In this document: positions 12,871 to 54,228 of the stretch, piece by piece | How the letters are laid out: the number at the start of each line of letters is the position of its first letter | How positions within the stretch are numbered: the first letter of the stretch is position 1 | Source: Astropecten irregularis | Lineage: Eukaryota > Echinodermata > Asteroidea > Paxillosida > Astropectinidae | DNA: 64,000 bases | Direction: 5' to 3' | Assembly: GCA_963971285.1 (NCBI GenBank) | Contig: OZ020250.1 | Span: forward strand, 14,430,499-14,494,498 | The notes under the pieces: generated by a model | Databases searched by the model: none | What the model was told of the DNA's origin: nothing | The model's input: the letters and a program-made list of their open reading frames with translations, nothing else | Program-made: the position numbers and the translations under genes

Positions 12871-15107
12871 AGCTTGACGAAGCCACTTGTCGATTAAGTG
12901 CGAAGGCCACTTGTAAAAAATCTAACCAATTAGCCAGCAAACAGAATAACGCGTTATTAAAAAATAAATAAAATTGGTACCACATTAAGTCATCACAACA
13001 TCATGATCAGACCATCTGTTAGGAAATTCGGGCGACGACAAGTAGAGATGTATGACAAATTCAGAAAAGAAAAATGTATATGTATCATATGGGAGTCTAA
13101 TCAGTTGAATTGGAGCCCGTTACAAATGACCATGAATGACGGATTACAGTGATGCATGCTGAAATGATAATAGAATAACTCGCAACATGAGCAATTTCCG
13201 AGCGAGACTGCATACATGCAGCATCTGGAGCGAATGATGTTTGCCAGACGTTTTTTTTTTTTTTGGATGGCGGGGAAAAATTAATATTTTGGTTCGGGGG
13301 ATATGTTCCCCACTCCCCTTGATTGGCCAAACTGATCCTCTTTCTCTCTCTCGATCTCTCGCTCGCCCTGTCAAAGTGAAAAAGGAAATGTAGCTGGGGG
13401 ATTTGAGGCGGACAAATTTACCTGGTAAAATTAGCCGTGTATATATAGAGGCCTATACGTAAATGCCATGCAGTAAGAACAGTATTATACGGGCCGGGTT
13501 TACAGCGCAGTTTGTTGATCTGAGCTTGTTCCAGCCCGCTCAGCTAACAGCAGTTAGGGGATTCGCAATTAGGAACTTTCAATATTGGCAGAATACGATG
13601 TGGCTATTTTACAGTTGCGACGGTGACAAAGACCTGTCATCTCCCCGTCTCATCCGAGCCGTATCTCAACAACCGGACATTTTAACGGGTATCTGGTGCC
13701 GAAGAAAGGCCTGTCGTACTTTGTCTGATACTGAGCGCTGTTCCCCAGAGGAAATGTAAAAAAAAAAAAGGGGGGGGGGTATGATGGAAATCAAGCACTG
13801 TGTCATTTTTTGGATTGTATGTTTTAATTTAAAGGTTAAGACTTGTATTAATCCCACACTGGTATACATGTCTGGATCAGTAATATCACAACCAATATAT
13901 ATACACCCAACGGCGCCACTTCTATAATTATACGACAGTGTATAATACGATACATTATTAAGAGAGAATGCTTAAATTAAATGAGTTACATGCAGCCAAC
14001 ATAGGGATTTCGTAGAAAATCTATCAGCTTTTTTGTCCGTATAATCAGCACAAGACTTCTCACTGTTTGTTCCCGCTCTCTGTGTCTTTTTCTTTTCGCC
14101 TATAGTGCCCTAAAGTGCCCTAAAGTGTCCGACGAGAGATGATTCCAGAGCCGAGATTTGCCGCGCCATCAGGCCGATGAGCCCGGGGTGTCCCGCGCCC
14201 AAGCGCCGGTAAGATTTCACACCGGTCAATTTACGGCAAACGATACGAACACACGGTCTTGTCTTTTTGATTTTCTTGCTCAGTGTGACTTCATCATGCG
14301 TTATTATACGTTCTCCGAAGTCACGATGGTTGTTGGGGCGATGTTTCTATCATCGCTGGCTTCCCTGTCGCTAGTGTGGGCTTTATGCGCCGCTACAGAC
14401 TGTTGCAAGCCGACATATCACCTTCGGTTCCGCTCCCTGTCTCCTCCGTCTAAATCTCCCGTCACTCAGCATCTCAGCCAGCCAAGGAATGTTGACTGTA
14501 CCTCGATCAAAAGTCAGGATGTCTCGACCAGTACATCAGAATTATTGATAACAGAAATGTTACTAAGCACTGACGGAATAGTTCGGAATGTCAAGATTAT
14601 TGAAATGATGTTGACTCTGAAAATATAGAGGGGAAATGTTTGTGGTATAGCTTTTTATGGGATACTTGGAATGCCACAATAGGGCAATTTTATGGTTCCT
14701 CACGCTACGTTGTTTTATGCAATAAAGAAAAGTTTGCGGATATACCATGCATAAACGCCTTTATAGACCTTTCTTTTGCAACGTCACAGTCCGGGTTTTT
14801 GCCAACCAAGATGGCGGAAACTATGGAGAGCCGTCAAAGCCAGACGTAAAAAATAACCACAATTATTTTGAACACAATTTGTACATATCATTTCATAAAC
14901 GTTGAAAGATATTACTGAATGTAATGGAAACAACACAAGCGATGATGGTATATGAATTTGTACAGCTATGGAAAGTTTGCAAATTATGTTGAATGTGGTC
15001 ACGCCGTCTGTCAAGAAGACGAAATGATTTGCAACATTTGGCCGCCTATGCCAAGTATTGCCAACCAGCATGTCAGTGTTTGTATATAAACAAAAGAAAG
15101 ATCTATA
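12871..15107. other. Intergenic stretch with unrecognised open frames
   Basis: The longest frame, 14158..14628 (+), would encode from the ATG at 14296 a hydrophobic start resembling a signal peptide followed by a Ser/Thr-rich region. I do not recognise it, and no splice partner is evident. Also holds a CT run near 13340 and short A and G runs near 13760. Confidence 0.3.
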
Positions 15108-15266
15108 GATGTGTGATTCTGAAAAGAACCGGTGAGAAGTTTGATCTCGACGTTTTGACCAATGTACTCTGGCCTTCCTCACGAGAGTGTGCGGCCAGAG
15201 GACGGCCAGAGTACACTGGCCGAAACGTCGAGATCAAACCGGTTCTTTTGAGAACCACACATCTAC
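15108..15266. repeat. Foldback with decayed hammerhead-like modules on both strands
   Basis: Arms 15108..15173 and about 15202..15266 are inverted, with a 7-bp indel. On the plus strand the hairpin GGCCAG-AGTACA-CTGGCC is followed by GAAACGTCGAGATC; on the minus strand a similar hairpin is followed by AAAACGTCGAGATC. The expected CTGATGAG core is degraded to CCAGAG (plus) and CTCGTGAG (minus). Followed by CATGGTGTCTCCACAAACC, which also adjoins the 53705 foldback. Confidence 0.6.
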
Positions 15267-15493
15267 AAAGAGTTTATACATGGTGTCTCCACAAACCTTT
15301 CTTTATTATACTTCAAACATGCAAAGTTTCAAATGCTACTTGTTTGTCATGCAGTTTTCAGATACTTTTGGCTGTATTCATTATTTGGTTATACACGTTG
15401 AGTCCATGTAATCTCCTAGGATAGATGGAGTATAGCTATAAGCCTACCTAAGAATAAAAGATTAAAATTTGACGAGTACACCAGTATACACAC

Positions 15494-53293: not shown

Positions 53294-53704
53294 TTAAAGG
53301 TACTATCATACTTTAGTAGCATACCGAAACAGAAATCTTCACAGATTTACCTATAACTTACAGGGTATAAAGATGGTGATGGTAGAAACATACCGTTAAG
53401 GGTAGTATCATACTTTGGTATAGCATACTGAAACAGACATTTTCACATATTTACCTATAACTGACAGGGTATAAAGATGGTGATTGTAGTACCGTTAAAG
53501 TTTTTCTGCCTGAAACTCTGTATTTATCCAGGAGTAAAACCAATGATCAAAACAAATTTGATCTGCGAAGATAACGGTGAACAGATTTTTAAATACCTTG
53601 GCCGTTTTTCACTGTTTTCTCAAAGAGTGGGTACCGTGTGGGACTGGGAATTTCACAGATGACTGTTACTGTATCTTTCTTGATTTTGCCCACGAATCTG
53701 TATT

Positions 53705-53892
53705 TGTGGATCGGTTTGCGGAAACACCATGTAAGAATCGTTCGTACTTTCGCACTTCTATTTCGTTCGAGACTCCTGATGAGGACTAGAGCAGACTAGT
53801 CGAAACATTGAGACCTTACGAGAAGTGCGAACGAAATAGAAGTGCGAAAGTACGAACGATTCTTACATGGTGTTTCCGCAAACCGATCCACA
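53705..53892. repeat. Foldback with perfect 65-bp arms around a hammerhead-like loop
   Basis: Arms 53705..53769 and 53828..53892 are exact reverse complements. The 58-bp loop contains CTGATGA, a hairpin and GAAAC. The outer arm text CATGGTGTTTCCGCAAACC resembles CATGGTGTCTCCACAAACC next to the 15108 foldback. Confidence 0.93.
53751..53829 (+). ncRNA. Type I hammerhead ribozyme-like motif (Penelope-type)
   Basis: CTGATGA (53776..53782), one extra G, stem II GACTAG/CTAGTC closed by AGCAGA, then GAAAC (53802..53806). Next comes ATT as candidate NUH cleavage triplet, stem I proximal pairs GACTC/GAG-AC, and a distal stem CGCACTTCT/AGAAGTGCG. Stem III is the minimal form seen in hammerheads of Penelope-like retroelements, which work as dimers. 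The usual ACGT of stem III reads ACAT here and the extra G precedes stem II, so activity may be reduced. The forward frame through the core reads TPDED. Confidence 0.72.
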
Positions 53893-53994
53893 TACCAATT
53901 GTCACCATTCGAGGCGCAAATCTTTCTTGAATCTGTATTTCTTTGACAAAAAACAACAACTTGAACAACAAACAAAGTATGAATTTACCTTTAA

Positions 53995-54228
53995 AGAGTG
54001 TGCGTCGTATATTATAACTGCAATTGATGGATAACATTCATATATCACCGCCCAAGTACATTAATGTTTACCAATTAAGTTAAATCCATTTGCCACCAGG
54101 AGGGTTGGCCCTCCCCTCAAATCATAAACGAGAGCCTACTCGATCAAGTGTGTGCAGCTCGCACGCCATGCATGATTGTACATCCAGCACATCACAGACT
54201 GTAATCTCTTCTGACTGCTCGTTAGGGC
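53995..54228. other. Gene-free spacer
   Basis: Nothing recognised between two TTAA MITE blocks. Confidence 0.3.

What the first reader, a model, noticed from the sequence alone, without database searches (positions are those of the whole stretch)
53705..53892. Hammerhead ribozyme module in the loop of a perfect 65-bp foldback
Seen: exact 65-bp inverted arms enclose a 58-bp loop with CTGATGA, a six-pair stem II hairpin, GAAAC and a pairable extended stem I (CGCACTTCT with AGAAGTGCG). Known: Penelope-like retroelements carry minimal type I hammerheads in their terminal repeats. Inference: this is a snapped-back Penelope end inserted into a TTAA MITE. Perfect arms imply recent origin or gene conversion. 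Oddities: an extra G before stem II and ACAT in place of a self-complementary stem III.
Basis: partly seen in the sequence, partly recalled or inferred. Interest (0 to 1): 0.85.

Follow-up and report, generated by a model that had tools for sequence, protein, structure and literature searches.

The report
Tiny Penelope-derived foldback with hammerhead relic
This is one young copy of a very small, gene-less jumping element that borrows the end of a Penelope-type retrotransposon, including a worn-down self-cutting RNA motif, and its mirror-image shape fits two DNA copies being made toward each other when it inserted.

Summary
The 65-bp perfect foldback and hammerhead-like core are real. They belong to a 223-bp insertion (53706-53928) with a 12-bp target-site duplication inside a TTAA-type MITE whose empty site appears in seven loci. 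It is one copy of a small non-autonomous Penelope-like (PLE) family: hammerhead module (46 nt), 78-nt tail1, 34-36-nt tail2. Exact copies of the module's 3' half: 1993; copies of the 3' end (up to 2 mismatches): 3229; reversed controls 0. Tail1 and tail2 are colinear with the pLTR and ORF start of PLEs in the same genome, and both end at the same place. In 24 of 26 two-armed copies one arm starts at the tail1 end and the other at the tail2 end, the known PLE tail asymmetry, best read as two cDNAs made from the two target strands. The window copy has lost much of both, misses Rfam's threshold and is probably inactive. New member of a known kind. Noticed beside it: PLE pLTRs, one in this window, carry a histone-type 3'-end stem-loop just after the hammerhead.

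The parts
53694..53705 (.). left target-site duplication GAATCTGTATTT
   Evidence: unoccupied GAATCTG.ATTTCTTTGA site in seven loci
53706..53928 (+). whole non-autonomous PLE-type insertion (223 bp)
53705..53769 (-). left arm: inverted tail1 (positions 13-77), cDNA begun at start site A
53770..53815 (+). hammerhead-like module: stem I remnant 53770-53775/53810-53815, CTGATGA 53776-53782, extra G 53783, stem II 53784-53789/53796-53801, GAAA 53802-53805, CATT 53806-53809
   Evidence: (71.6 bits with model R1, of which this sequence was a training row)
53816..53893 (+). tail1, sense copy (pLTR part)
   Evidence: colinear with PLE pLTRs
53828..53892 (+). right arm of the perfect foldback
53894..53928 (+). 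tail2 = start of the PLE ORF (CACCATGCAAAGC in relatives, altered here), ends at start site B
53929..53940 (.). right target-site duplication GAATCTGTATTT
53294..53994 (.). host TTAA-type MITE carrying the insertion (TTAAAGG...CCTTTAA)
   Evidence: (I2)
15106..15342 (+). second, older foldback: PLE pLTR with two inverted hammerhead modules (15143-15188 minus, 15190-15235 plus), stem-loop 15239-15256 and ORF-start remnant 15319-15336

Best explanation
A short non-autonomous retroelement made of the pLTR end of a Penelope-like element (hammerhead module, tail1, and a tail2 that contains the PLE ORF start), copied in trans by a PLE reverse transcriptase. Shown: the family, its 5' and 3' ends, its target-site duplications, the colinear PLE homology and the shared 3' terminus. 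Inferred: at insertion both target strands, cut about 10-13 bp apart, each primed a cDNA on an RNA of the family, one from internal start site B (end of tail2) and one from site A (end of tail1). The two cDNAs were joined where they met. In the window copy the site-B cDNA ran to the RNA 5' end at stem I of the hammerhead and the site-A cDNA stopped 65 nt in, leaving 65-bp arms round one module. Inferred: the module is a PLE-type minimal hammerhead that could cleave only when two modules pair through the palindrome ACGU. Uncleaved RNA is what was reverse-transcribed, and the window module is an inactive relic.
For: Family size: 1993 exact copies of the module 3' half, reversed control 0; 3229 copies of the 3' end with up to 2 mismatches, control 0. 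Two start sites: of 26 two-armed insertions (nine duplicate loci collapsed), 24 have one arm ending at A and the other at B (tally 123). In a second sample of 20 loci, 11 of 11 two-armed copies whose outer ends could be read do too. TSD score of 8 or more in 18 of those 24, against 0.6% of 2000 random flank pairings, and in 8 of 20 against 0 of 4000. Empty MITE site in 7 loci. PLE link: tail2 matches L067, L069, L070 and L071, tail1 matches these and L066, in order and next to RT ORFs. A whole PLE copy on C27 has the same layout: inverted arm starting at A, 3' end at B, duplication ACGTGTATGTA. RNA 5' end: in the 21 distinct insertions the module match starts at position 1-7; in 11 one-armed copies it starts at 1-2 in nine, at 9 and 10 in two. 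Dimer fold: a stretch spanning two module copies has the hammerhead three-way junction as its minimum-energy fold, z -2.5, 6 of 200 shuffles as good; Rfam Hammerhead_3 scores a 291-base piece of an array 24.2 bits, E 0.0045. Literature: PLE tail, inverted pLTR and TSD in PMC3846280 (passages); internal RT start and cutting of both strands in PMC11167929 (main text).
Against: Exceptions to the A/B rule: L051 has no tail2 on either side and looks A/A by eye, and the second arm of one L053 element ends inside tail1; L078 is tail-to-tail; the array in L050 ends at A without tail2. No Rfam hammerhead reaches the gathering score; permissive scans of the older foldback, a related pLTR and the PLE loci list none at all. 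Three array units fold as a long rod and the single module pairs part of its core, not as a hammerhead. The modules have an extra nucleotide between CUGANGA and stem II, and 87 of 92 exact-pattern PLE modules read GGAA instead of GAAA. On the covariation test, structures slid by one column reach the same number of two-sided changes. Arms agree at the two diagnostic transversions in 26 of 29 and 26 of 31 copies, which also fits a single template. No autonomous element with this exact module was found. The tail homology to the fetched PLEs is short (18-41 nt at 85-95%; E-values from 6e-7 to 0.25) and rests on order as much as on score.
Confidence: 0.75

Rival explanations
1. Snap-back: a single cDNA primed on itself after reaching the RNA 5' end, so both arms derive from one template.
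For: Window arms are 65/65 identical. Arms agree at the two diagnostic columns in most copies. PMC3846280 proposes self-priming, on an antisense template, for head-to-head PLE inverted repeats (passages).
Against: The second arm stops at site A instead of running on into tail2 or the flank in 24 of 26. Head-to-head copies with two module sequences exist (L001, L004, L075, L077, L080, L085-L088). Transversion discordance between arms is higher at the two diagnostic columns than elsewhere (8 of 60 against 52 of 2056, odds ratio 5.9, p 2e-4; columns chosen).
Confidence: 0.27
2. A DNA-transposon MITE with long terminal inverted repeats, the hammerhead resemblance being incidental.
For: Long inverted arms, small size, high copy number, sharp outer ends.
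Against: The two ends differ (A against B). TSDs are 10-13 bp rather than a fixed short motif. One-armed copies are inserted too. The ends coincide with where PLE copies end.
Confidence: 0.05
3. A metazoan non-LTR retrozyme that spreads through small circular RNAs cut out by its hammerheads.
For: Hammerhead core, non-autonomous, tandem 54-nt module arrays at C1, C19 and C22 (33 exact junctions at seven places). PLEs are named as likely helpers of retrozymes (PMC7761336 passages).
Against: The copies read are mostly single units that begin 5' of the ribozyme rather than at the cleavage site. The module is minimal, with no closed stem III. Published units are about 150-450 bp with canonical hammerheads (PMC7229834 passages).
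Confidence: 0.1

Closest known systems
Penelope-like elements with inverted pLTRs, optional tail and short TSD (e.g. Pen2a_Av, PMC3846280, passages read)
   Same: inverted pLTR, 31-bp tail optionally on one of the inverted pLTRs, pLTR reaching into the ORF start, 8-10 bp TSD in several copies, head-to-head arrangement
   Different: no ORF; about 160-nt unit; thousands of copies; TSD about 10-13 bp
Minimal PLE hammerheads that cleave as dimers (Lunse, Weinberg and Breaker 2017; only its title seen, in reference lists; recalled otherwise)
   Same: CUGANGA/GAAA core, short palindromic stem III, PLE association
   Different: one extra nucleotide before stem II in the modules here; GUU triplet; window copy degenerate. 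One or two nucleotides inserted next to CUGANGA are said to occur in hammerhead alignments (PMC10085705, passages)
Poseidon of Anolis carolinensis, PAc (PMC11167929, main text read)
   Same: RT starts internally near the ORF start; the tail is the stretch between two start sites; both target strands cut and extended; hammerhead cleavage not needed for insertion in vitro
   Different: autonomous element; its hammerhead overlaps the ORF start
Metazoan non-LTR retrozymes (PMC7229834, abstract and passages)
   Same: non-autonomous, hammerhead, TSDs longer than 4 bp when present
   Different: 150-450-bp tandem units with canonical hammerheads, circular RNA shown

Membership tests
Hammerhead ribozyme | CUGANGA and GAAA core joined by stem II | tested here: met
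   with one extra G before stem II
Hammerhead ribozyme | stem I closing the core | tested here: inconclusive
   GGUCUC/GAGACC in the family; window copy keeps only the three core-proximal pairs CTC/GAG
Hammerhead ribozyme | stem III with the A-U pair and an NUH cleavage triplet | tested here: not met
   family ACGU palindrome + GUU; window copy ACAU + AUU, neither palindromic nor closed
Hammerhead ribozyme | score above an Rfam gathering threshold | tested here: not met
   best relative 24.2 bits against 48.5
Hammerhead ribozyme | self-cleavage | not testable with these tools
   needs transcription and a cleavage assay
Penelope-like element insertion | pLTR homologous to a PLE with reverse transcriptase | tested here: met
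   short but colinear
Penelope-like element insertion | inverted pLTR with a 30-40 bp tail on one side only | tested here: met
   24 of 26 two-armed copies, window copy included
Penelope-like element insertion | short target-site duplication | tested here: met
   18 of 24; window 12 bp with empty site
Penelope-like element (autonomous) | ORF with RT and GIY-YIG | tested here: not met
   element is 223 bp, too short for these; partners L069/L070 have RVT_1; a GIY-YIG-like motif in L069 aligns weakly (E 0.005) but is not called by Pfam
MITE of a DNA transposon | equal ends and fixed-length TSD | tested here: not met
   A/B ends, 10-13 bp TSD
Metazoan non-LTR retrozyme | tandem 150-450 bp units with canonical type I hammerhead | tested here: not met
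   single about 160-nt units in most copies read; 54-nt arrays at few places

The most novel reading that the evidence does not exclude
The PLE lineage behind this element joins two RNA-processing devices in one pLTR: a minimal dimeric hammerhead and, about 10 nt further on, a histone-type stem-loop with a purine-rich AAAGAG site. Its RNA would be cut by the U7/SLBP machinery of replication-dependent histone mRNA, giving non-polyadenylated, S-phase-linked retrotransposon RNA. The small element in the window would be a parasite of that lineage that kept the ribozyme and the RT start sites but dropped the histone signal.
Probability: 0.4. Interest if true: 0.82.

Novelty: new member of a known kind. 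Interest (0 to 1): 0.5.

Why it matters
The family supplies thousands of short insertions from which the PLE insertion reaction can be read: the start sites on the two arms nearly always differ, the duplications are 10-13 bp, and the reverse-transcribed RNA kept its hammerhead uncut. That makes two-strand priming, seen in vitro with one purified enzyme, testable by genome comparison. PMC7761336 calls the role of these minimal hammerheads unknown (passages); these data argue that cleavage is not needed before copying. The histone-type stem-loop beside the hammerhead, if functional, would explain how a retrotransposon RNA gets its 3' end and tie it to S phase.

Tried and rejected
Rejected: (1) A protein-coding reading of the repeat strand: two hand-made peptides gave no Pfam family below E 0.06. 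(2) The abundant PLE of L049 as direct parent: its ORF matches none of the element loci held then and its pLTR hairpin is different. (3) The 3.9-kb shared repeat (L039-L048) as autonomous carrier: longest ORF in L041 is 140 aa; the small element is nested in it. (4) Close pairs of 3' ends as tandem autonomous units: they are separate insertions. (5) miRNA hits on the foldback: far below threshold, an effect of the perfect hairpin.

Led nowhere: the papers PMC5785218, PMC4209133, PMC8557442 and PMC5850863 are not held. The head-to-head module count did not complete. The other PLE-related stretches fetched (L055-L063, L065, L072) gave no second parent; L063 carries a related motif (12.3 bits, E 0.37).

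Rows dropped and samples: 4 of 39 distinct modules were left out of alignment A1 (L001_1520, L004_1492, L052_2905, L054_174: core broken at a junction). Of the 30 loci, nine copies of one nested insertion were collapsed into L011, leaving 21. L001 and L004, L052 and, as exceptions, L051 and L053 make 26 two-armed insertions. L032 and L037 share a target, so they may be one event. One search used window 53700-53897, which does not hold tail2. The second sample was picked by hand from the first-100 lists, mostly with a tail2 match near a module, so a B end was nearly guaranteed there: 11 two-armed readable, 5 one-armed, 3 not readable (L090-L092), 1 tail-to-tail (L078). The A/B tally was entered by hand. 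The search required exactly one nucleotide between core and stem II; only allowed none to two, and there the L067-type module can also be read with none if GAAC is accepted.

I also added five one-armed copies that I had left out, two of which start at positions 9 and 10.

Full report
WHAT IS THERE. The arms 53705-53769 and 53828-53892 are exact reverse complements with 58 nt between them. The loop holds CTGATGA, one extra G, a six-pair hairpin GACTAG/CTAGTC and GAAAC. No Rfam hammerhead reaches threshold in the window, and a permissive scan of 53600-54000 lists only miRNA models far below their cut-offs, which respond to the perfect hairpin. The window lies in an unnamed 475.7-Mb genome. Its size recalls a lancelet to me; that was not tested.

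THE FAMILY. A DNA search with 53700-53897 found 82 matches, with only 40 of 1669 candidates scored. Alignment of 30 loci and mapping of pieces give the unit: a 46-nt module GGTCTC-CTGATGA-N-GACTAG-loop-CTAGTC-GAAA-CGTT-GAGACC, then a 78-nt tail1 ending CGATCCACAT, then tail2 ending CAAATCTTTC(TT). The module 3' half CTAGTCGAAACGTTGAGACC occurs 1993 times exactly and the tail2 end 3229 times with up to two mismatches; reversed controls gave 0. Many copies carry a second, inverted tail1 facing the first, which makes the foldback. Some hold two inverted modules, some one, and some are one-armed.

ENDS AND TARGET SITES. One search holds 26 distinct two-armed insertions. In 24 of them one arm's outer end is the tail1 end (site A) and the other's is the tail2 end (site B) (tally). 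The exceptions are L051, which has no tail2 and looks A/A by eye, and one L053 element whose second arm ends inside tail1. In a second sample of 20 loci, picked so that a B end was nearly certain, 11 of 11 readable two-armed copies have A at the other end; one locus, L078, is tail-to-tail. Flanking direct repeats score 8 or more in 18 of 24, against 0.6% of random pairings, and in 8 of 20 against none of 4000. For the window copy the duplication is GAATCTGTATTT. Seven other loci with the surrounding MITE show the unoccupied sequence once. So the insertion is 53706-53928. In the 21 distinct insertions the module match begins at position 1-7. In 11 one-armed copies it begins at 1-2 in nine and at 9 and 10 in two. 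The copied RNA therefore began at or near stem I, upstream of the expected cleavage site, and was not cut by its own hammerhead.

THE PENELOPE LINK. A GIY-YIG search and an RT search showed several PLE groups. In one of them (L066, L067, L069-L071; RT 33-34% identical to L049; RVT_1 in L069 and L070) the ORF start CCATGCAAAGCTTCAAATC matches tail2 in four loci, and the sequence before it matches the end of tail1. Each match is short (18-41 nt, 85-95%, E 6e-7 to 0.25), but module, tail1 and tail2 lie in the same order. The 3' pLTRs of L069-L071 hold a related module and stop just after the same ORF start. One whole PLE copy on C27 has an inverted arm starting at the A position, a 3' end at B and a duplication ACGTGTATGTA. 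Published PLEs have inverted pLTRs with a 31-bp tail optionally on one of them and, in several copies, 8-10 bp duplications (PMC3846280, passages). A purified PLE enzyme starts reverse transcription inside the ORF start, the tail being the stretch between its two start sites, and cuts and extends both strands (PMC11167929, main text). The small element is thus a pLTR-only passenger of a PLE. No autonomous copy with the identical module was found.

MECHANISM OF THE FOLDBACK. Two cDNAs primed on the two cut strands explain the different start sites, the duplications and the head-to-head joins. Snap-back of one cDNA predicts that the second arm could run on through tail2; in 24 of 26 it stops at A instead. 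Arms agree at the two subfamily-diagnostic transversions in 26 of 29 and 26 of 31 copies, yet discordance there is higher than at other columns (8 of 60 against 52 of 2056, odds ratio 5.9; the columns were chosen). This is modest support for two templates in some copies. Arm identity ranges from 83.6 to 100% over 24 copies; the window copy is at 100%, with no difference from the family majority in tail1, so it is young.

THE HAMMERHEAD. The family module has stems I and II and the core, with a stem III reduced to the palindrome ACGU. A 68-nt stretch spanning two array units folds, as its minimum-energy structure, into the three-way junction (z -2.5, 6 of 200 shuffles as good); but three units fold as a long rod, and the single module pairs part of its core. 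In permissive mode Rfam calls a piece of the array Hammerhead_3 at 24.2 bits, below the 48.5 cut-off. Other PLE modules in the genome keep the layout with different paired letters: GGCCAG/CTGGCC, GAACAG/CTGTTC, GGTGC/GCACC and GATCC/GGATC, the last with a broken core. On 35 modules 88.6% of cells pair and 4 of 12 pairs have two-sided changes (0 of 500 shuffles reach this). One-column slides reach the same count of two-sided pairs with only 32-35% of cells paired, so covariation alone is not proof. A model built from these finds both modules of the older foldback, which were not in the training set (39.1 and 36.1 bits), and the PLE pLTRs (52.4 bits; that sequence was a training row). The modules read have one extra nucleotide before stem II (whose search required it, which allowed none to two); published alignments allow one or two there (PMC10085705, passages). 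Against activity: 87 of 92 PLE modules matching one pattern read GGAA, and the window copy has lost half of stem I and the palindrome.

TANDEM MODULES. Arrays of 54-nt units lie at C1, C19 and C22 (33 exact junctions at seven places). The C1 units are of two interspersed types, which suggests amplification at the DNA level at least in part.

BESIDE THE FINDING. The window's older foldback holds a histone-type stem-loop (Rfam Histone3, 30.0 bits, cut-off 34). PLE loci L067 and L070 pass the cut-off (36.1 bits); L071 and L069 of the same group do not (25.5 and 23.9). L064 and L068, near-identical loci of one other PLE group, score 25.5 bits, also below the cut-off, with a differently paired stem that lies just after an upstream ORF. 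GGTTCTTTTCAGAACCACAC followed by AAAGAG within 3-14 nt occurs 315 times, control 0. The hammerhead 3' half precedes the stem-loop in 112 places, control 0. Canonical GGCTCTTTTCAGAGCC plus AAAGAG occurs 433 times, control 0. Of the first 100 places listed, two lie about 1.0 kb upstream of listed PLE RT matches (0.012 expected). How many of the 433 are histone genes is not known. Not every PLE stretch fetched shows the signal, but most were partial. A search for 'histone stem-loop' with 'Penelope' found no paper in the held library; a wider one listed 15 of 46 papers, none on the subject by title. The small element lacks the stem-loop.

VERDICT. A new, abundant, non-autonomous member of the Penelope-like elements with a degenerate minimal hammerhead; the structure is well explained by known PLE insertion behaviour.

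Noticed in passing
window 15239-15272; L067 1116-1160; L070 1947-1991; L064 516-559 (-); L068 843-886 (-): Histone-type 3'-end stem-loop plus AAAGAG (U7-like) site in PLE pLTRs, in the L067 group directly after the hammerhead; above the Rfam cut-off only in L067 and L070. 315 exact copies of one stem-loop + AAAGAG pattern genome-wide, control 0; 112 of a linked hammerhead + stem-loop pattern.
   Followed up: partly
window 15106-15342: Second, older PLE pLTR foldback in the same window with two inverted hammerhead modules; its plus-strand module keeps GAAACGTC, as do only 5 of 92 matches of one pattern.
   Followed up: partly
G000:C1:3250906-3251977, C19:4734175-4735995, C22:10121910-10122218: Tandem arrays of 54-nt hammerhead units, with a family tail following the C1 array once.
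   Followed up: partly
window 53907-53917: Private block of changes in tail2 (ATTCGAGGCGC for ATGCAAAGCCTC), the only match in the genome with up to 1 mismatch, although the arms show no change.
   Followed up: partly
L039-L048 (about 3.9 kb, roughly 96-98% identical): A larger repeat without long ORFs that carries one nested copy of the small element together with PLE-type modules and stem-loops.
   Followed up: no
L066 1066-1185: U5 spliceosomal RNA gene or pseudogene (90.6 bits) just upstream of a PLE insertion.
   Followed up: no
G000:C11:21063511-21063543 and C9:5968187-5968219: Canonical GGCTCTTTTCAGAGCC + AAAGAG 1001 and 1014 nt upstream of PLE RT matches of a further group.
   Followed up: partly
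L063 1092-1132 (-): A PLE of another group has a hammerhead-like motif with stem III AGCU, stem II GGTGC/GCACC and one extra A before stem II.
   Followed up: no
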